Of a DNA stretch of 36,043 nt, positions 20,676-34,154 are shown in pieces. A model generated the notes under the pieces. It had not been told where the DNA came from, searched no databases, and was given only the letters and a program-made list of their open reading frames with translations. Position numbers and translations under genes: made by a program. Within the stretch, counting starts at the first letter, position 1; the number at the start of each line of letters is the position of its first letter. Origin of the DNA: Acidobacteriota bacterium (GTDB taxonomy: Bacteria > Acidobacteriota > UBA6911); the NCBI GenBank assembly GCA_012729555.1, contig JAAYCX010000098.1, positions 1 to 36,043 of the forward strand. The letters run 5' to 3'.

Positions 20676-20827
20676 ATTGAACTCCGGGTTTCCGCCTTCC
20701 ATTATGACATAACCGGCACGATCCCGCACCAATCGGCCCGGTGCAGGGCGATATCGGCACTGTGGGTCGCGCCGGGCCCCTTTTGCATTATCGAGACCAG
20801 GCAGTACAGGATGACCGGAGGCAACCT

Positions 20828-21382
20828 ATGGAGAAAAAAGTCTTTCAACTCAAGGTGACGCTTTGCCGCACGAAACCCCCCATCTGGAGGCGGCTGGAGG
20901 TCCCGGCCGACACGACCCTCGGCCGGCTGCACGATGTGGTGCAGTTCGCCATGGGCTGGTTCGACTGCCACCTGCACCAGTTCGTGGCGAAGGGGGTATG
21001 CTACGGGGTGCCCGATCCGGAGTTCGGCCCGGAAATGGAGGACGAAAACAAGGTCCGCCTCGACCAGGTCCTGCGCAAACCCAAGGACAAGTTAACCTAC
21101 GAGTATGATTTCGGGGACAGCTGGTATCACGACATCGTGCTGGAAAAGGCGCTGCCCGGCTCCAACGGGAAAAGGTACCCAGTGGTGACCGGCGGCCGGG
21201 GCGCCTGCCCGCCCGAGGACTGCGGGGGGGTCGGGGGCTTCTACCGTCTGCTGGAGATCCTCGGCGACGCCTCACATCCCGAGTACAAATGGATGCGGGA
21301 ATGGTCCGGCGGCGATTATGACCCGAAGGCGTTCGACCTCGAGGCGGTCAATCGGGCGTTCCAGGGAAGGAAGAAGCGGTAA
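20828..21382 (+). CDS. plasmid pRiA4b ORF-3 family protein (184 aa)
   Basis: The family signatures are present: KPPIWRRLEVPADTTLGRLH, FAMGWFDCHLHQF, YEYDFGDSWYHDIVLE and GGRGACPPEDCGGVGG. The function of the family is not established; members are common on plasmids and genomic islands and near transposons. GGAGG lies six bases before the ATG. It is a diverged paralogue of the gene at 25078-25698; the two bracket the RhuM operon and the PEP-CTERM gene. Cys in the CPPEDC motif could bind metal. Full-length by comparison with its paralogue. Confidence 0.9.
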   Translation: MEKKVFQLKVTLCRTKPPIWRRLEVPADTTLGRLHDVVQFAMGWFDCHLHQFVAKGVCYGVPDPEFGPEMEDENKVRLDQVLRKPKDKLTYEYDFGDSWYHDIVLEKALPGSNGKRYPVVTGGRGACPPEDCGGVGGFYRLLEILGDASHPEYKWMREWSGGDYDPKAFDLEAVNRAFQGRKKR

Positions 21383-25002: not shown

Positions 25003-25077
25003 GGTCGCATGCCGTGCCGGCGCCTCAGGCGGAGCGCCATTGTCGGATATGCCGGCCGGAGCCAGGAGCCGAAGCTC

Positions 25078-25698
25078 ATGATGAACGCCCGGAACCATAC
25101 CGTGTATCAGTTCAGGATTGTTTTAAGAGAAATCGAACCGCCCATCTGGAGGGTGATTCAAACCCCCTCCAATTATTCCTTTTGGGACCTGCACGTGGCC
25201 GTACAGGACGCGATGGGCTGGCTTGACTGCCACCTGCATTCGTTTCGCTTCCGAATGCCGCATAAACGCAAGGATACGATCCTCGGCATCCCGGATGATG
25301 GTTCATTCGACCTGGATATCCTGCCGGGCTGGCAGTTTCCGATTGCGGCATATTTTACCGAACCGGGCAAGACGGCGCTCTATGAATACGATTTTGGAGA
25401 TTCGTGGCTGCACGATGTCCTCCTGGAGGGAATTCTGCTGAAAGACAAGACCCTCAAGTATCCCCGGTGCATCGACGGGGGACGGGCCTGCCCGCCCGAG
25501 GATTGCGGCGGGGTGCCGGGCTACCATGAGCACCTCGAGATCCTTGCCGGTTCCCAAGGTCCGGAATACCGGGAGCACGTGGAATGGCTGAAGGGTCATT
25601 TAAAAAACTATTGGCCCTGCGATCCCGACTATTTCGATCCCGACGATGTGGAGTTCTGGAATCCCCATAAGCGGTGGAAGATGACGTTTGCCGAATAG
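25078..25698 (+). CDS. plasmid pRiA4b ORF-3 family protein, second copy (206 aa)
   Basis: It shares with the gene at 20828 the order EPPIWRVIQTPSNYSFWDLH, DAMGWLDCHLHSF, YEYDFGDSWLHDVLLE and GGRACPPEDCGGVPGY, then LEILAGSQGPEY. It is longer in the middle (ILGIPDDGSFDLD) and at the C-terminus (CDPDYFDPDDVEFWNP). Two adjacent ATGs (25078, 25081) follow an AGGAG ten bases upstream. The two copies are protein-level paralogues, with no long nucleotide match seen, so this is not a recent duplication. Function unknown; carried in the same low-GC accessory patch. Confidence 0.9.
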   Translation: MMNARNHTVYQFRIVLREIEPPIWRVIQTPSNYSFWDLHVAVQDAMGWLDCHLHSFRFRMPHKRKDTILGIPDDGSFDLDILPGWQFPIAAYFTEPGKTALYEYDFGDSWLHDVLLEGILLKDKTLKYPRCIDGGRACPPEDCGGVPGYHEHLEILAGSQGPEYREHVEWLKGHLKNYWPCDPDYFDPDDVEFWNPHKRWKMTFAE

Positions 25699-26966: not shown

Positions 26967-27020
26967 GGGGTCGCAGTACTGTTCTGCAGTCCGGGTCGTT
27001 GCGTTCATGGGGAGATGGAG

Positions 27021-27566
27021 ATGGAAACCGCCAAAGAGGAGATGAAAAAGGGGTACACGCTCGCCGCGGGCGGGGAGCACGCGGAGGCGCTCGAGGCCTT
27101 CACCCGGGCCGAAGCGGGGTTCGCGGCTGCGGGGGACGAACGGGGCCGGGCCCGCGCCTGTACCAACAGGTCGCTGGCGCTGGTGCGGCTCGGACGCCTC
27201 GCGGAGGCGCTCGAAGGCTTCCGGTCGGCGCTCGGGAGCTTCGAGGCCGAAGGGGAGCTCCTGCACGTGGCCGAGCAGCACGGGAACATCGGCTCGGTCC
27301 ACCGCGACCTGGGGGAGCCGGACGCGGCGCTCGCGGGCTACGAGAAGGCGCTCGAACTCTACCGGCGCCTGGGGATGGAGGAGCGGGCGGCCGACCAGTG
27401 CACCAACCTCGCCTACGCCCGGTACATGAAAGAAGACTACCCGGAGGCCCTCCGCTGCTACCGCGAGGCGGTCGGGCTCTACGCCCGGTCCGGCTGCGAG
27501 GAGAAGCGCGCGCTGGCGGCCGCGAACGCGGACCGGCTGGAGGCGGCGCTCGGGACAGCGGAATGA
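27021..27566 (+). CDS. tetratricopeptide-repeat protein (181 aa), first gene of a four-gene operon
   Basis: Four to five TPR units are readable: residues 1-35, 42-76 (ARACTNRSLALVRLGRLAEA), 85-118 (EQHGNIGSVHRDLGEPDAAL) and 125-160 (DQCTNLAYARYMKEDYPEAL), each with the Ala/Gly/Tyr spacing of the helical hairpin. There is no signal peptide, so it acts in the cytoplasm as a protein-binding scaffold. GGGGAG is six bases before the ATG at 27021; an ATG at 27015 is immediately next to that site and less likely. The stop overlaps the DUF4037 start by four bases. Together with DUF4037, DUF4125 and a methyltransferase it forms a tightly coupled unit. Confidence 0.88.
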   Translation: METAKEEMKKGYTLAAGGEHAEALEAFTRAEAGFAAAGDERGRARACTNRSLALVRLGRLAEALEGFRSALGSFEAEGELLHVAEQHGNIGSVHRDLGEPDAALAGYEKALELYRRLGMEERAADQCTNLAYARYMKEDYPEALRCYREAVGLYARSGCEEKRALAAANADRLEAALGTAE

Positions 27567-28471
27567 AGGGGCTGGAGCTCGCCGAAAGCTACTACCGCGC
27601 GGTCGGGCTCCCGATGCTGCGCTCCCGCTTCGCGGGCTGGGAGGAGCGGTTGGCGGCGGGCCTGGCCGGGCCCGGTTCGGAGTGTTTCGGCCTGGACGAC
27701 GCGATCTCGCGCGACCACGACTGGGGCCCCGCCTTCTGCCTCTGGCTCGGCGACGAGGAGTACCTCGAGATCGGCGAGCGCCTGCGGCAGGCGTACCTGG
27801 AGCTCCCCCCCCTCTTCATGGGCTTCGGCCCCCGCAAGGCCAGCCCGGGGGAGGAGTGGCGCGTCGGCCCCTGCCGCACCTCCGACTTCTTCCGCCGCTT
27901 CACCGGGCTCCGGCGCCCCCCCGAAACCCTCCGGGAGTGGCTGCGGATCCCCGAAGCCAACCTGGCCGCCTGCACCAACGGCAAAGTCTTCGCCGACCCC
28001 GAGGGGGGGTTCACCCGCTGGCGGCAGGCCCTGCTCGACTATCCCGAGGACGTGCGCCTCAGCAGAATCGCCGATCTCTGCCTCTCCGTCGGCCAGACCG
28101 GGCAGTACAACTTCGCCCGCTCCGTGCGCCGCGCCGAACCGTTTGCGGCCGCCTACTCCGCGGTGAAGTTCTGCGCCGACGCGATCGCGCTGGTGTTCCT
28201 CCTCAACCGGCGCTACGCCCCCTTCTACAAATGGCTCCACCGCGCCGTGCGGGACCTGCCGCTCCTGGGGAGCGCCGTCCACGAGCGGGTCGGCGCCCTG
28301 GTGCAGTCGTCCGAGCCGGCGCGCCGGGAGGAGATCATGGAGGAAACCTGCGTCCTCCTGGCCGACGAGCTCCGGCGGCAGGGGCTGTCGGACTGCCCCG
28401 GCGATTTCCTGCTCGAGCACGCCCCGCGGGTGCGGGCGCGGATCACCGACCCGGAACTCGCGCGCCCCTGA
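27563..28471 (+). CDS. DUF4037-family protein, predicted nucleotidyltransferase-like (302 aa)
   Basis: GSECFGLDDAISRDHDWGPAF (split: GSECFGLDDA and ISRDHDWGP) around residues 38-57 resembles a nucleotidyltransferase-type active loop: a Gly-Ser followed by clustered Asp residues. Later segments, YNFARSVRRAEPFAAAYSAV and FLLNRRYAPFYKWLHRAV, match the conserved core of DUF4037. Function has not been established for the family as far as I know. ATG overlaps the TPR stop (ATGA). The DUF4125 gene begins 11 bases after the stop. The co-occurrence of DUF4037 and DUF4125 is recurrent in bacteria, sometimes as fusions. The substrate, nucleotide or protein, is unknown. Confidence 0.82.
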   Translation: MKGLELAESYYRAVGLPMLRSRFAGWEERLAAGLAGPGSECFGLDDAISRDHDWGPAFCLWLGDEEYLEIGERLRQAYLELPPLFMGFGPRKASPGEEWRVGPCRTSDFFRRFTGLRRPPETLREWLRIPEANLAACTNGKVFADPEGGFTRWRQALLDYPEDVRLSRIADLCLSVGQTGQYNFARSVRRAEPFAAAYSAVKFCADAIALVFLLNRRYAPFYKWLHRAVRDLPLLGSAVHERVGALVQSSEPARREEIMEETCVLLADELRRQGLSDCPGDFLLEHAPRVRARITDPELARP

Positions 28472-28482
28472 CTGGAGACACC

Positions 28483-29067
28483 ATGAACGAAAAAGAGCGG
28501 CTCATCGAAGCGATCCTGGAGATCGAACTCCGGATGTTTTTGACCGTAAACCCGGTCCTGACGAGCGGGTGCCAGGAAGACCCCGAGGGTTTCCGGCTCC
28601 ACCGCCGCGCCCAGTTCCTCCCCTGGCCCGAGGAGACTCTCGCCAGCTACCTCGAGGACCTCGGCGCGGCCGAGGAGCGGGGGGAGAACCTGATGCGCCG
28701 CAAGTACGCCCGCATGCAGGGCCCGGCGGAGGAAAGCGGCCCGGAAGTCGAGGAGATCGTGCGCCGCGAGATGGAGTGGCAGCGCGCGATGTTCCGGGAC
28801 TACCCCGCCGTCATGGGCGGCGCGCGCCCCCTCACCGACGACCGCACCCGGGCCGAGATGACGTCGTTTGAAACCTACACCCGCGGCGAGCTCGAAACCT
28901 ACTCCCCCCGCACCCTGGGGCTGCTGCGGCGCGACCTTGTGGCCATGCGGGACCGGGGCGAGAGCCTGTCCGAGAAAATCTACGGCCACCTCGTGCGCGC
29001 GCTCGGCTACGCCTCGCTCGCGGACGCGGAACAAAAATTGAAACCCCGGATGGGTCCCCTTTCATGA
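28483..29067 (+). CDS. DUF4125-family protein (194 aa)
   Basis: The protein opens with EKERLIEAILEIELRMFLTV, then FRLHRRAQFLPWPEETLASY, YARMQGP and MEWQRAMFRDYPAVMGGARPL, the conserved blocks of DUF4125. It is mostly helical and cytoplasmic, with no metal or nucleotide motif that I recognise. TGGAGA lies seven bases before the ATG. The stop overlaps the methyltransferase start by four bases. It is the third gene of the TPR-DUF4037-DUF4125-methyltransferase operon; it probably works on, or with, the DUF4037 protein. Confidence 0.82.
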   Translation: MNEKERLIEAILEIELRMFLTVNPVLTSGCQEDPEGFRLHRRAQFLPWPEETLASYLEDLGAAEERGENLMRRKYARMQGPAEESGPEVEEIVRREMEWQRAMFRDYPAVMGGARPLTDDRTRAEMTSFETYTRGELETYSPRTLGLLRRDLVAMRDRGESLSEKIYGHLVRALGYASLADAEQKLKPRMGPLS

Positions 29068-29771
29068 CGAGGCAAACCGTGGGCAACCCCGACTGGATGT
29101 GGAACGAAATGCGGCAGGTGGGAACCGACTACGCCGACACCGCCGAGGTGGCGGCCTATGACGCGCGCATGGCGTCCTTTCGCGACGTGAACCGGGAAAA
29201 TCAGCAGACATTGGCGCTTCTCGAGCTCGCGCCGGGCTCGAAGGTCCTCGAGATCGGGTGCGGCACCGGGCGATTCGCCCGCGCCGCCGCCCGGGCGGGC
29301 CTCGAATCCTTTGCGGTCGACATCTCCGAAGTCATGCTCCGCTACCTGGCCGAAAAAGCGCAGGAAGAGGGATTAAAGCTTGCCGGGCTTCAACACGCGG
29401 GCTTTTTGACCATGAGCTTTCCTCCGGGGCATTTTAACGCGGCGGTCTCGGGCGCCGCCCTGCACCACCTCCCCGACGCCTGGAAGCTCGTCGCCCTTCT
29501 CAACGTCGCCCGGGTTCTCCGGCCCGGGGGGCGGTTTCTCCTCGGGGACGTGGTGTTTTCCCTCTCCCCGGACGAGACTCCCGAAGAATGCTTCGAGCGC
29601 TTCTGCGCGTCGCTTCCCGGCATGCGGCTGGAAGCGGCGCGCCACGCCGCCGCGGAGTTCTCCACCTACGACTGGATCCTGGAGGGCCTGATCGAACGCG
29701 CCGGCTTCGAGATCGAGTCAAGGACCGCCGCCCCCGCCTCCTTCATCCGGTACCTTTGCAGGAAAACCTAG
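29064..29771 (+). CDS. class I SAM-dependent methyltransferase (235 aa), last gene of the DUF4037/DUF4125 operon
   Basis: SAM-binding motif I is VLEIGCGTGRFARAAARAG, followed by FAVDISEVML (motif II), SFPPGHFNAAVSGAALHHLP (motif IV) and ARVLRPGGRFLLGDVVF (motif V/VI). It overlaps the DUF4125 stop by ATGA and so is obligately co-translated, which separates it from the unrelated methyltransferase at 8111-8830. The C-terminal 60 residues (about 175-235) may form the substrate cap. Substrate unknown; methylation in a metabolic or modification pathway with the preceding gene products is inferred. A 52-base gap separates it from the convergent BrnA. Confidence 0.9.
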   Translation: MTRQTVGNPDWMWNEMRQVGTDYADTAEVAAYDARMASFRDVNRENQQTLALLELAPGSKVLEIGCGTGRFARAAARAGLESFAVDISEVMLRYLAEKAQEEGLKLAGLQHAGFLTMSFPPGHFNAAVSGAALHHLPDAWKLVALLNVARVLRPGGRFLLGDVVFSLSPDETPEECFERFCASLPGMRLEAARHAAAEFSTYDWILEGLIERAGFEIESRTAAPASFIRYLCRKT

Positions 29772-29823
29772 CGCGGGCCGCTCTTGAGTTCTTCAGCCAG
29801 GTGTTCTCCCGGACGTATCGCAG

Positions 29824-30129
29824 TTAACGGCATGGTGAACCGCTGGAGCCCTTGTCGGGATTGGCTCTTTGAGCAGCGCCATACCTGGCCAACTCCTCCC
29901 GGACCACCGAGCGCAGTGTCTCTTCCAGCGGTTCCTCCATCGATTCGATATGCCGGCGCAAAGCTTCATTGATCAACGCCTGATAGCTGCCCCCCCCTGC
30001 GGCGTGGACCTGGGCGCGGAATGATTCCAGGATGTCATCGTCAATGCGAATCGTAATTCGGGTCTTTCCGGGAGGCGCCTTGAGGACCCTGCCCCGCTTG
30101 CCATGCGAGAAATCGTATTCCTTTTTCAT
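29824..30129 (-). CDS. brnA: BrnA-type antitoxin (101 aa)
   Basis: The ribbon-helix-helix core reads KTRITIRIDDDILESFRAQV, followed by a helix GGGSYQALINEALRRHI; this is the BrnA pattern. The N-terminus (KKEYDFSHGKRGRV) is also typical. It follows the BrnT gene by three bases, on the same strand. BrnA binds BrnT and represses the promoter; the promoter at 30403-30431 precedes BrnT. The C-terminal ~25 residues (after VREELARYG) are unusual and may be an added tail. Confidence 0.9.
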   Translation of the reverse strand: MKKEYDFSHGKRGRVLKAPPGKTRITIRIDDDILESFRAQVHAAGGGSYQALINEALRRHIESMEEPLEETLRSVVREELARYGAAQRANPDKGSSGSPCR

Positions 30130-30132
30130 GAT

Positions 30133-30396
30133 CTAACCCTCGTACTGATGGCTCTCATGTGGTGTCGCCCGCCTGGCCGATATGATTCTGATGGTGTCGC
30201 CACGCCAGGCATAGACTACAACCAACAGACGGCCCAGGGCATTCATCCCTAAAGTGACAAAGCGCTCCTCGCCTGAAACACACTCTCGAATGGTGACTGC
30301 CCGGTCGTCGTCGAGCACCGATACCGCATCGGCGAAATCAACATTGTGTTTCCGTTGGTTTGAAGCCGCTTTGGCTGGATCCCAATCGAGCTTCAT
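30133..30396 (-). CDS. brnT: BrnT-type RNase toxin (87 aa)
   Basis: KLDWDPAKAASNQRKHNVDF, then EERFVTLGMNALGRLLVVVY and IRIISARRATPHE are the BrnT signatures; the RNase residues of the family (the Arg/His/Lys group in RKH and SARRA) are present. The start is set at 30396 because the -10 box at 30408-30403 leaves only about 6 bases before an ATG pair at 30399/30396, so a leaderless message starting with MKLDW is expected. A longer frame upstream is the remnant described at 30424-30519. It forms a pair with BrnA. Confidence 0.9.
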   Translation of the reverse strand: MKLDWDPAKAASNQRKHNVDFADAVSVLDDDRAVTIRECVSGEERFVTLGMNALGRLLVVVYAWRGDTIRIISARRATPHESHQYEG

Positions 30397-30402
30397 CATA
30401 AA

Positions 30403-30431
30403 ATTGTATGTACATGCGTGCATATTGTCAA
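30403..30431 (-). promoter_or_regulatory. brnTA promoter, near consensus
   Basis: On the minus strand TTGACA (30431-30426), exactly 17 bases, TACAAT (30408-30403). The predicted start lies at the ATG pair 30399/30396, with no ribosome site, so leaderless. The spacer contains ATGTACAT and TGCATA partial palindromes, candidate BrnA sites. Confidence 0.75.
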
Positions 30432-30519
30432 GGTGCTGGAAAATATCCACCCTTTCGGCTGCTCCCACGGTGGCGCCGGCCTTGATTTCCACCCCGGCCA
30501 CGGCGCTCTCGGGGCGAAA
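30424..30519 (-). pseudogene. C-terminal remnant of a DUF4143/AAA ATPase
   Basis: The frame upstream of BrnT reads FRPESAVAGVEIKAGATV and then AERVDIFQHLDN. This resembles the C-terminal GIEVKA-type strand-turn of DUF4143 ATPases. It is only about 32 residues long with no start, and the BrnT promoter lies within its end. Weak but specific. Confidence 0.4.
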
Positions 30520-30586
30520 TACCGGAATGGGGAATCGGCCCTGGCCTGCCTGACGGAATTCTGGAACTTTCCCCCGATGACGGTGA

Positions 30587-32434: not shown

Positions 32435-32806
32435 ATGAGAGATGATACAAAGAAGCATATCGGGCAAAGACCATTAAGGCTAAAAGGGCTTCCCGTGGAT
32501 CTCCGGGAAAAGCTCAAAGAAGCGAGGATCGGTCGCGGCTGGGGCCAGAGGGAGCTGGGCGGTAAAATCGGGTTGCCCCAACCGCACATATCCGCCATTG
32601 AATCGGGCGGGGTTGTGCCCCGTTTCGACACGCTGCTCGATATCGTCCGGGTTCTCGATCTGGACCTCCTGCTCGTTCCCCGTTCGCTTGTTCCCGCGGT
32701 ACAGTCTCTCATACGGGCGCAGAAGGAGCCCGAGTCCGCTGAGAAATCGCTCTATGCAGCCGGTGATGAAGAGCCACCACCCGAAAGGGACCATGATGAA
32801 ATATGA
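32435..32806 (+). CDS. hipB: XRE-family antitoxin HipB-like (123 aa)
   Basis: The helix-turn-helix reads LKEARIGRGWGQRELGGKIG and LPQPHISAIESGG, followed by VPRFDTLLDIVRVLDLDLLL, the HipB pattern. The N-terminal 25 residues (KKHIGQRPLRLKGLPVDLRE) and the acidic C-terminus (AGDEEPPPERDHDEI) are longer than in Escherichia HipB. Its 3' end overlaps the hipA start by 14 bases. The upstream promoter and dyads suggest strong autoregulation. Because the hipA frame is disrupted downstream, HipB may now serve only as a regulator. Confidence 0.88.
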   Translation: MRDDTKKHIGQRPLRLKGLPVDLREKLKEARIGRGWGQRELGGKIGLPQPHISAIESGGVVPRFDTLLDIVRVLDLDLLLVPRSLVPAVQSLIRAQKEPESAEKSLYAAGDEEPPPERDHDEI

Positions 32807-34154
32807 TCCCAAAACAATAAACGCGCTCGCGGTCCACCTGCACAAACGCCGAATTGGTGTAATAAACCGGCTCGGTGGTGATGGCTTTCTTTTCTCATTC
32901 GAGCAGGATTATATCGACGACTCGAACCGGCCCACGCTCAGCCTTTCCTTCAAGGGGCAGGCCGGCGGCTTGGTCTATCCAACGCGCGCCGTGGCAGCGC
33001 GATTGCCCGTATTCTTCTCGAACCTTTTGCCCGAAGGCCATCTGCGTGAGTATCTCGCCACGCATGCCGGCGTGAAGCCTCGACGCGAATTTTTCCTTCT
33101 GGCTGTGCTCGGGGAAGATCTTCCCGGCGCACTCACCGTAGCACCGTAATCGTGCAATAATCCCCACATTCCCAAGGGCCTGGTGAATGCCTATGATACC
33201 CCCTAAAAATGGGAGGAATCATGGCACTCAAAACAGGACAAACCACAACCCATCGATCGAATACAGGAATCTGTCGCACCCGATGAAGGAAAACGCGATC
33301 AGGATGAGCCCGCGCCGGGGCCCGTTTTCAGATTTTCACTCGCGGGAGTACGGCTGAAATTCTCAGCACTCATGGAGGCCTCGGGTGGCCTCACTATTCC
33401 CGCCGGCGGAAAAGGAGGTTCGTGGGTGGTGAAGCTGCCATCCGGCCGATTTGCGGGAGTGCCCGAAAACGAATACACCATGATGTCGCTCGCACGGGAA
33501 ACAGGCATTGAGGTTCCACCCATGGAGCTGGTCGACATGAGCGACATTCGCGGACTGCCCGCCGATGCCGGCGCCATGGAAGGGAAGGCACTTGCCGTAC
33601 GGCGCTTCGATCGCGGCACCCGTGGGGAGAGCATCCACATGGAGGATTTTGCCCAGGTCTTCGCTGTCTATCCGGAAGACAAATACCACCGGCACAGCTA
33701 TGCCGACATTGCTTCCGTTTTATGGGCGGAAACCGGAGAAGCCGGCACGTATGAATTTTTGCGGCGGTTGGTCTTTTCGGTGCTGATCGGAAATGCGGAT
33801 ATGCACCTGAAGAACTGGTCGCTTCTCTATCCCGACCGCCGCACGCCTGTGTTGTCGCCTGCCTACGATTTTCTTTCTACCCTGCCTTACATACCGGGCG
33901 ATGAATTGGCCCTGGGTTTCGGCGGCAGCCGCAGCCTTCGTGAAATCACTCCCGATCAAGTAAGGCGTTTTGCAGATACTGCGCGACTGCCCGTAAGTCC
34001 GTTATGGAAGATCGTCATCGACACCACAGAGCGAACCGTGGCGGCCTGGGAGACACTCGCCGAAAAGGATATTCTTTCCGAAAAGATGCGTGGATTGATC
34101 GGCGATCAGATTTTCTCCGTGGCAAAGACCGTCGCGCGCGCAACCGGCAAATAA
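32793..34154 (+). pseudogene. hipA: hipA kinase toxin gene interrupted by a frame-preserving insertion
   Basis: HipA phosphorylates glutamyl-tRNA synthetase (E. coli) or other tRNA synthetases. The N-terminal part (32793-33146) reads normally to GEDLPGALTVAP, then meets TAA at 33147. The same frame resumes near 33251 (IDRIQESVAPDEGKRDQ ... FRFSLAGVRLKFSALM) and runs to 34154. It includes the ATP-binding lysine segment (SWVVKLPSG), the catalytic GNADMHLKNWSLLYPD and the metal-binding PAYDFLST. Between is about 105 bases (35 codons) containing two stops (33147, 33204). Both halves together give about 420 aa, the usual HipA length. The insert has its own GGGAGGA and ATG (33221). The C-terminal half alone might be translated; the full kinase is not. 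Confidence 0.8.

What the first reader, a model, noticed from the sequence alone, without database searches (positions are those of the whole stretch)
27021..29771. Translationally coupled TPR / DUF4037 / DUF4125 / methyltransferase operon of unknown function
Two junctions are ATGA overlaps (TPR-DUF4037 and DUF4125-methyltransferase) and the third gap is 11 bases, so the four proteins are made in proportion. DUF4037 carries a nucleotidyltransferase-like loop (GSECFGLDDA then RDHDWG). A scaffold, a possible nucleotidyltransferase, a helical partner and a methyltransferase together suggest a two-step modification of a small molecule, RNA or protein. I know of no described function.
Basis: partly seen in the sequence, partly recalled or inferred. 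Interest (0 to 1): 0.65.

Follow-up and report, generated by a model that had tools for sequence, protein, structure and literature searches.

The report
Nucleotidyltransferase module tied to glycyl-radical enzymes
Three of these four neighbouring genes (TPR, DUF4037, DUF4125) form a widespread bacterial gene set that occurs almost only in genomes with oxygen-sensitive glycyl-radical enzymes, often right beside them, which gives two families of unknown function a testable role as helpers or regulators of such enzymes.

Summary
The four ORFs, both ATGA overlaps and the 11-base gap are real. The conserved unit is three genes, TPR-DUF4037-DUF4125. The methyltransferase is absent from the nine other genomes of the genus, and the sister species shows a deletion scar where it stood. 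DUF4037 is predicted (pLDDT 97) to be an ANT/kanamycin-type nucleotidyltransferase with a C-terminal HEPN-like bundle. GS, DxD and the likely third Asp are kept in 50-51 of 51 homologues. DUF4125 is an all-helical protein with no solved relative found. The main result is context. 49 of 50 genomes carrying DUF4125 encode a glycyl radical enzyme (GRE); three random samples give 5/5, 20/20 and 22/25 against base rates of 25-42%. A GRE lies within 10 kb in 13 of 50 loci (0.9 expected). Neighbouring GREs include benzylsuccinate synthase, alkylsuccinate synthase and hydroxyphenylacetate decarboxylase. Translated published primers indicate that the unexplained toluene genes bssG and bssJ are DUF4125 and DUF4037. 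The window's genome has four GREs, none near this operon. Best explanation: an accessory or regulatory module for GREs in which DUF4037 transfers a nucleotide to a protein partner. The GRE link is well supported; the chemistry and target are inferred. I found no paper describing this general link.

The parts
27009..27014 (+). GGGGAG, likely ribosome-binding site for the TPR gene (start ATG at 27021)
   Evidence: sequence
27021..27566 (+). TPR protein, about 181 aa; an alternative in-frame start is at 27015
   Evidence: Pfam TPR_1/TPR_12; TPR fused to DUF4037 in 10 other loci
27563..27566 (+). ATGA start-stop overlap TPR/DUF4037
27563..28471 (+). DUF4037 protein (302 aa), predicted ANT/kanamycin-type nucleotidyltransferase with C-terminal HEPN-like helical bundle; likely orthologue group of BssJ and LrcM
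   Evidence: Pfam PF13228 1e-32; AF2 pLDDT 96.9; fold matches to ANT(4')/KNTase
27674..27721 (+). codons for GS-x11-DxD (G38 S39 to D53): predicted Mg/NTP-binding motif of the nucleotidyltransferase
   Evidence: invariant in 51 of 51 homologues
27995..27997 (+). codon of D145, likely third catalytic carboxylate, directly after a predicted strand
   Evidence: D in 50 of 51 homologues; secondary structure; role inferred from the fold family
28483..29067 (+). DUF4125 protein (194 aa), all-helical, no solved relative found; GRE-linked; likely orthologue group of BssG and LrcL
   Evidence: Pfam PF13526 6e-54; AF2 pLDDT 93.7; invariant E15 C30 R41 N69 K74 Y75 Y132 E136 in 75 of 75
29064..29067 (+). 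ATGA start-stop overlap DUF4125/methyltransferase
29064..29771 (+). class I SAM methyltransferase, an accessory cargo gene rather than part of the conserved unit
   Evidence: below cut-off of NF043040 CpaM, 82 of 180 bits; only in this genome of 10 in the genus

Best explanation
TPR-DUF4037-DUF4125 is an accessory or regulatory module of glycyl radical enzymes (GREs). The TPR protein (in some bacteria fused to DUF4037) docks on a protein; DUF4037 is an active nucleotidyltransferase that moves an NMP group onto a protein, either DUF4125 or the GRE/activase; DUF4125 is the GRE-specific partner that couples this to GRE maturation, protection or on/off control. Steps shown: gene order, co-occurrence and adjacency with GREs, nucleotidyltransferase fold (predicted) and kept active-site residues. 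Steps inferred: catalytic activity, protein (not small-molecule) substrate, identity of the target, direction of the effect. In this window the client would be one or more of the four GREs encoded on other contigs; the methyltransferase is optional cargo.
For: GRE in 49 of 50 genomes that carry DUF4125. Independent samples: window's phylum, DUF4125 in 5/199 genomes, GRE in 50/199, overlap 5 of 5; order of Demequina, 20/198 and 84/198, overlap 20 of 20, p = 8e-9; phylum of the L012 deltaproteobacterium, 25/247 and 82/247, overlap 22 of 25, p = 3e-9. DUF4037 without DUF4125 shows no such link (27 genomes, 7 with a GRE). A GRE lies inside the fetched locus (up to 10 kb each side) in 13 of 50 loci, 0.9 expected. 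In Rubneribacter and Eggerthella the genome's only GRE hit lies beside the module; in Rubneribacter it is a hydroxyphenylacetate decarboxylase. Neighbour GREs: benzylsuccinate synthase, alkylsuccinate synthase MasD, hydroxyphenylacetate decarboxylase. bss primers in PMC7285207 translate to DUF4125 (bssG: MFSQVR, LDEGRN) and DUF4037 (bssJ: VGVFE, APYFKW); limonene operon LrcL/LrcM (PMC12583861). Fold and catalytic residues. The window's genome has four GREs.
Against: No GRE within the window; the four GREs lie on other contigs. The window's nearest DUF4125 relatives L016 and L017 also lack an adjacent GRE, and the L016 genome shows no GRE at all. Eight genus members have no DUF4125, and those checked have GREs, so the module is not needed for GRE use. 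Disrupting bssJ in Azoarcus sp. CIB left growth on toluene intact (PMC5874301). No catalytic activity or interaction has been shown. Co-occurrence partly reflects anaerobic life style, and samples are not phylogenetically independent.
Confidence: 0.6

Rival explanations
1. The link to GREs is a by-product of anaerobic life: the module serves some other anaerobic function (for example corrinoid or CoA-ester metabolism) and merely travels with anaerobic catabolic islands.
For: Several loci have no GRE nearby and lie beside other anaerobic genes, e.g. a corrinoid-reductive-activator-like gene in L017 (assigned by eye). Bifidobacterium and Demequina loci are not adjacent to their GRE.
Against: 13 of 50 loci with a GRE inside against 0.9 expected. 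In one genome two DUF4125 copies each lie 6-9 kb from a different GRE (G636). 20 of 20 co-occurrence in an actinobacterial order where only 42% have a GRE.
Confidence: 0.25
2. DUF4037 modifies a small molecule (as aminoglycoside nucleotidyltransferases do), and the operon, with the methyltransferase, detoxifies or tailors a metabolite: the first reader's two-step idea.
For: Best fold matches are ANT(4') and kanamycin nucleotidyltransferase (Z about 13); a SAM methyltransferase follows in this genome.
Against: Methyltransferase not conserved with the unit. One module sits beside GREs with unrelated substrates: alkanes, toluene, hydroxyphenylacetate. A TPR scaffold fused to DUF4037 suggests a protein partner.
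Confidence: 0.1
3. Toxin-antitoxin or anti-phage module of the HEPN/MNT kind, with DUF4125 as toxin or effector held in check by DUF4037.
For: DUF4037 has an MNT-type motif and a HEPN-like bundle; invariant Tyr residues in DUF4125 could accept AMP, as Y104 of HepT does (PMC7641770).
Against: No PADLOC match for TPR, DUF4037 or DUF4125. PMC3710099 lists this HEPN type without the Rx4-6H RNase motif. Linked to metabolic GRE operons and co-transcribed as part of bss (PMC5874301).
Confidence: 0.05

Closest known systems
bssG and bssJ (with bssK) of the benzylsuccinate synthase operon of anaerobic toluene degraders
   Same: Translated published primers match DUF4125 (bssG) and DUF4037 (bssJ) at conserved sites; the SDR bssK follows bssJ as an SDR gene follows DUF4037 in loci L042, L051, L059 and L066.
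   Different: Those operons hold the GRE and its activase; here a TPR gene precedes, no GRE is adjacent and no SDR gene is present. Identity rests on short translated primers, not full sequences.
LrcL (DUF4125) and LrcM (DUF4037) of the limonene ring-cleavage operon (PMC12583861)
   Same: Same two families; found in a bacterium that uses a GRE (limonenylsuccinate synthase); next to bssE.
   Different: No function proposed there; no TPR gene mentioned in the passages read; gene order differs.
Aminoglycoside nucleotidyltransferases ANT(4')/kanamycin NTase (PDB 6un8, 1kny)
   Same: Same overall two-domain fold (Z about 13 over 238 residues) with GS and Asp cluster.
   Different: 12-13% identity; own invariant set; linked to GRE genes and a TPR protein instead of resistance.
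HEPN/MNT (HepT/MntA) toxin-antitoxin
   Same: GS-x10-DxD nucleotidyltransferase motif (x11 here) and a HEPN-like bundle.
   Different: Both in one protein here; the Rx4-6H motif of the RNase is reported absent for this family (PMC3710099); partner is DUF4125, not a HEPN RNase.
CpaM corrinoid-protein-associated methyltransferase (NF043040)
   Same: Best NCBIfam hit of the fourth gene.
   Different: 82 bits against a cut-off of 180; no corrinoid protein gene was recognised next to it.

Membership tests
DUF4037 (PF13228) | Pfam gathering score | tested here: met
   113.2 bits against 22.1
DUF4125 (PF13526) | Pfam gathering score | tested here: met
   183.1 bits against 25
DNA polymerase beta-type nucleotidyltransferase (ANT/KNTase-like) | fold | tested here: met
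   AF2 pLDDT 96.9; Foldseek probability 1.0 to 6un8 and 1kan; Z 13.4 to 6p01, 238 residues, rmsd 6.5
DNA polymerase beta-type nucleotidyltransferase (ANT/KNTase-like) | GS motif, DxD and third carboxylate | tested here: met
   G38 S39 D51 D53 in 51/51, D145 in 50/51; the role of D145 is inferred
DNA polymerase beta-type nucleotidyltransferase (ANT/KNTase-like) | NTP-dependent transfer activity | not testable with these tools
   needs an assay
HEPN/MNT toxin-antitoxin | separate HEPN RNase with Rx4-6H motif | not tested
   not measured here; PMC3710099 records the motif as absent in this family
HEPN/MNT toxin-antitoxin | HEPN fold present | tested here: inconclusive
   residues about 160-275 match sacsin HEPN (Z 9.7, rmsd 2.5, 106 residues) and HepT (Z 8.1, rmsd 3.0, 99 residues), but unrelated helical bundles score alike
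GRE accessory module | co-occurrence with a GRE in the genome | tested here: met
   four GREs in the window's genome; 49/50, 5/5, 20/20, 22/25 elsewhere
GRE accessory module | GRE or activase in the same operon | tested here: not met
   no GRE hit on the window contig; a GRE lies in the fetched locus in 13 of 50 others
CpaM methyltransferase (NF043040) | curated score cut-off | tested here: not met
   82.1 bits against 180

The most novel reading that the evidence does not exclude
TPR-DUF4037-DUF4125 is a general nucleotidylation switch for glycyl radical enzymes: DUF4037 attaches AMP (or another NMP) to DUF4125, the GRE or its activase, setting GRE activation or oxygen protection, across unrelated GRE chemistries (hydrocarbon activation, arylacetate decarboxylation, pyruvate formate-lyase).
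Probability: 0.25. Interest if true: 0.85.

Novelty: new variant of a known kind. Interest (0 to 1): 0.6.

Why it matters
GREs carry out key anaerobic reactions (toluene and alkane activation, cresol formation, pyruvate cleavage), and the roles of the extra bss genes have long been open. A family-wide link ties bssG, bssJ, lrcL, lrcM and two DUFs into one module and names simple tests. If DUF4037 modifies a protein in this pathway, it would be a layer of GRE control for which I found no description.

Tried and rejected
Four-gene unit: rejected, the methyltransferase is not conserved with the rest. Methyltransferase as CpaM: below cut-off. Anti-phage system: no PADLOC match for the first three proteins; the methyltransferase matches part of mads_2 only through its generic methyltransferase domain. 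DUF4125 as a known fold: no significant Foldseek match, and the best VIA match is a designed helical protein at Z 7.1 over 60 residues, so the fold stays unassigned. DUF4037 as the GRE marker: rejected, since genomes with DUF4037 alone show no GRE enrichment. Identifying the window's client GRE by similarity to GREs next to modules elsewhere: identities only 28-36%, no clear match (the frame used for the fourth, L094, was not resolved). RNA elements: none. A first family search failed on a frame slip of mine.

Full report
Observation. Pfam confirms each.

What is conserved. A scan of one genome for each of 84,980 species with DUF4125 gave 80 loci with named organisms, from Acidobacteriota, Deltaproteobacteria, Clostridia, Chloroflexota, Actinomycetota, Bacteroidota and one Lokiarchaeon. 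DUF4037 was found in 55 and a TPR gene in 45 of them. DUF4037 lies within 250 nt upstream of DUF4125 on the same strand in 35, with a TPR gene before it in 29; in 10 loci TPR and DUF4037 are one open frame. PMC3710099 also notes TPR fusions of this family. Many contigs are cut short, so these are lower bounds.

The methyltransferase is not part of that unit. A match to it was found in only 3 of 80 loci, two of them next to DUF4125, and none in the nine other genomes of the genus. The sister species (L008 = L011) keeps TPR, DUF4037 and DUF4125 at about 89% DNA identity and the following 5'-nucleotidase gene, but lacks window bases 29052-30575 apart from about 70 bases that match the 3' end of the window's brnT. 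That scar means the sister probably lost the methyltransferase and brnA/brnT, so the unit is kept without them.

Folds. DUF4037 is modelled with high confidence (pLDDT 96.9) and matches ANT(4') and kanamycin nucleotidyltransferase over its whole length (Foldseek E 9e-4, probability 1.0; Z 13.4). Its C-terminal half resembles HEPN domains, though other helical bundles score alike. DUF4125 is an all-helical protein (pLDDT 93.7) without a convincing solved relative. It has invariant E15, C30, R41, N69, K74, Y75, Y132 and E136, more than a passive spacer would need.

Link to glycyl radical enzymes. In three other genomes of the window's phylum that carry DUF4125, a GRE stands beside it, with an activase gene in two of them. 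Of 50 genomes behind the loci, 49 have a PFL-like GRE. In random samples: window's phylum 5 of 5 against 50/199 (p = 9e-4); order of Demequina 20 of 20 against 84/198 (p = 8e-9); phylum of the L012 deltaproteobacterium 22 of 25 against 82/247 (counted, p = 3e-9). A negative control sits in the same data: 27 genomes with DUF4037 but no DUF4125 have a GRE in 7 cases, no enrichment. These p-values ignore kinship and are too small; the direction repeats in three groups.

Adjacency. A GRE lies inside the fetched locus in 13 of 50 loci; from GRE number and genome size 0.9 is expected. One genome (G636) has two DUF4125 genes, each 6-9 kb from a different GRE. In Rubneribacter and Eggerthella the genome's only GRE hit stands beside activase-TPR-DUF4037-DUF4125; the Rubneribacter one is a hydroxyphenylacetate decarboxylase. 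Neighbour GREs identified against solved structures are benzylsuccinate synthase (L042), alkylsuccinate synthase MasD (L014) and hydroxyphenylacetate decarboxylase (L010). The DUF4125 proteins of the MasD-type clusters (L012-L015) are the sister group of the window's DUF4125 clade (support 97/84).

Earlier names. In the toluene operon bssG, bssI, bssJ and bssL are of unknown function and bssK is an SDR protein (PMC7285207, PMC5874301). Primers printed in PMC7285207 translate, in one frame each, to MFSQVR and LDEGRN for bssG and VGVFE and APYFKW for bssJ. These fall on conserved sites of DUF4125 (MF..V; GRN) and DUF4037 (VGVF; P..KW). With the DUF4037-SDR order in L042, L051, L059 and L066 this makes bssG = DUF4125 and bssJ = DUF4037 very likely, though not proven from full sequences. 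A bssJ disruption in Azoarcus sp. CIB still grew on toluene; a bssF disruption, possibly polar on bssG, did not. The limonene study names LrcL (DUF4125) and LrcM (DUF4037) without function. Searches of open-access papers found no statement of the general link.

Mechanism. The most likely reading is a GRE accessory module: TPR-DUF4037 as a targeted nucleotidyltransferase and DUF4125 as the GRE-specific partner or substrate. The dispensability of bssJ fits a regulatory or protective role better than an essential maturation step. Precedent for a nucleotidyltransferase of this type modifying a protein is MntA, which adds AMP to a tyrosine of HepT (PMC7641770). Activity, target and nucleotide are not shown here. 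In this genome the four GREs are on other contigs, so the client cannot be named, and similarity searches did not single one out.

Confidence. GRE link of the family about 0.85; active nucleotidyltransferase about 0.65; protein nucleotidylation in GRE control about 0.25-0.3. The stated 0.6 is for 'GRE accessory or regulatory module' as a whole.

Noticed in passing
window 29824-30501 (- strand); L011 8263-8335: BrnA/BrnT toxin-antitoxin pair behind the methyltransferase; the sister species keeps only about 70 bases of brnT, joined onto the end of its DUF4125 gene.
   Followed up: partly
window 32435-34154 (+ strand): HipB-like HTH gene and a HipA gene split by in-frame stops (N-terminal domain 32790-33146, C-terminal domain 33372-34151): a HipBA locus that looks broken.
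   Followed up: partly
window 20741-21379 and 25009-25695: Two pRiA4b ORF-3-like genes (PF07929) within 5 kb.
   Followed up: no
window 4615-32242 against L011: The window and the sister contig match in blocks of 1-2 kb separated by large window-only stretches, so this region gains or loses genes quickly.
   Followed up: partly
L042, L051, L059, L066; L012-L015, L040: An SDR gene (IGGSYFxGRVFVE, BssK-like) follows DUF4037 in bss-type loci, and lies between DUF4037 and DUF4125 in L012-L015 and L040.
   Followed up: partly
genomes G265, G314, G398 and others: A second DUF4037 group in actinobacteria, many in open frames of about 360-380 aa, without DUF4125 and not linked to GREs: a different use of the same nucleotidyltransferase.
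   Followed up: no
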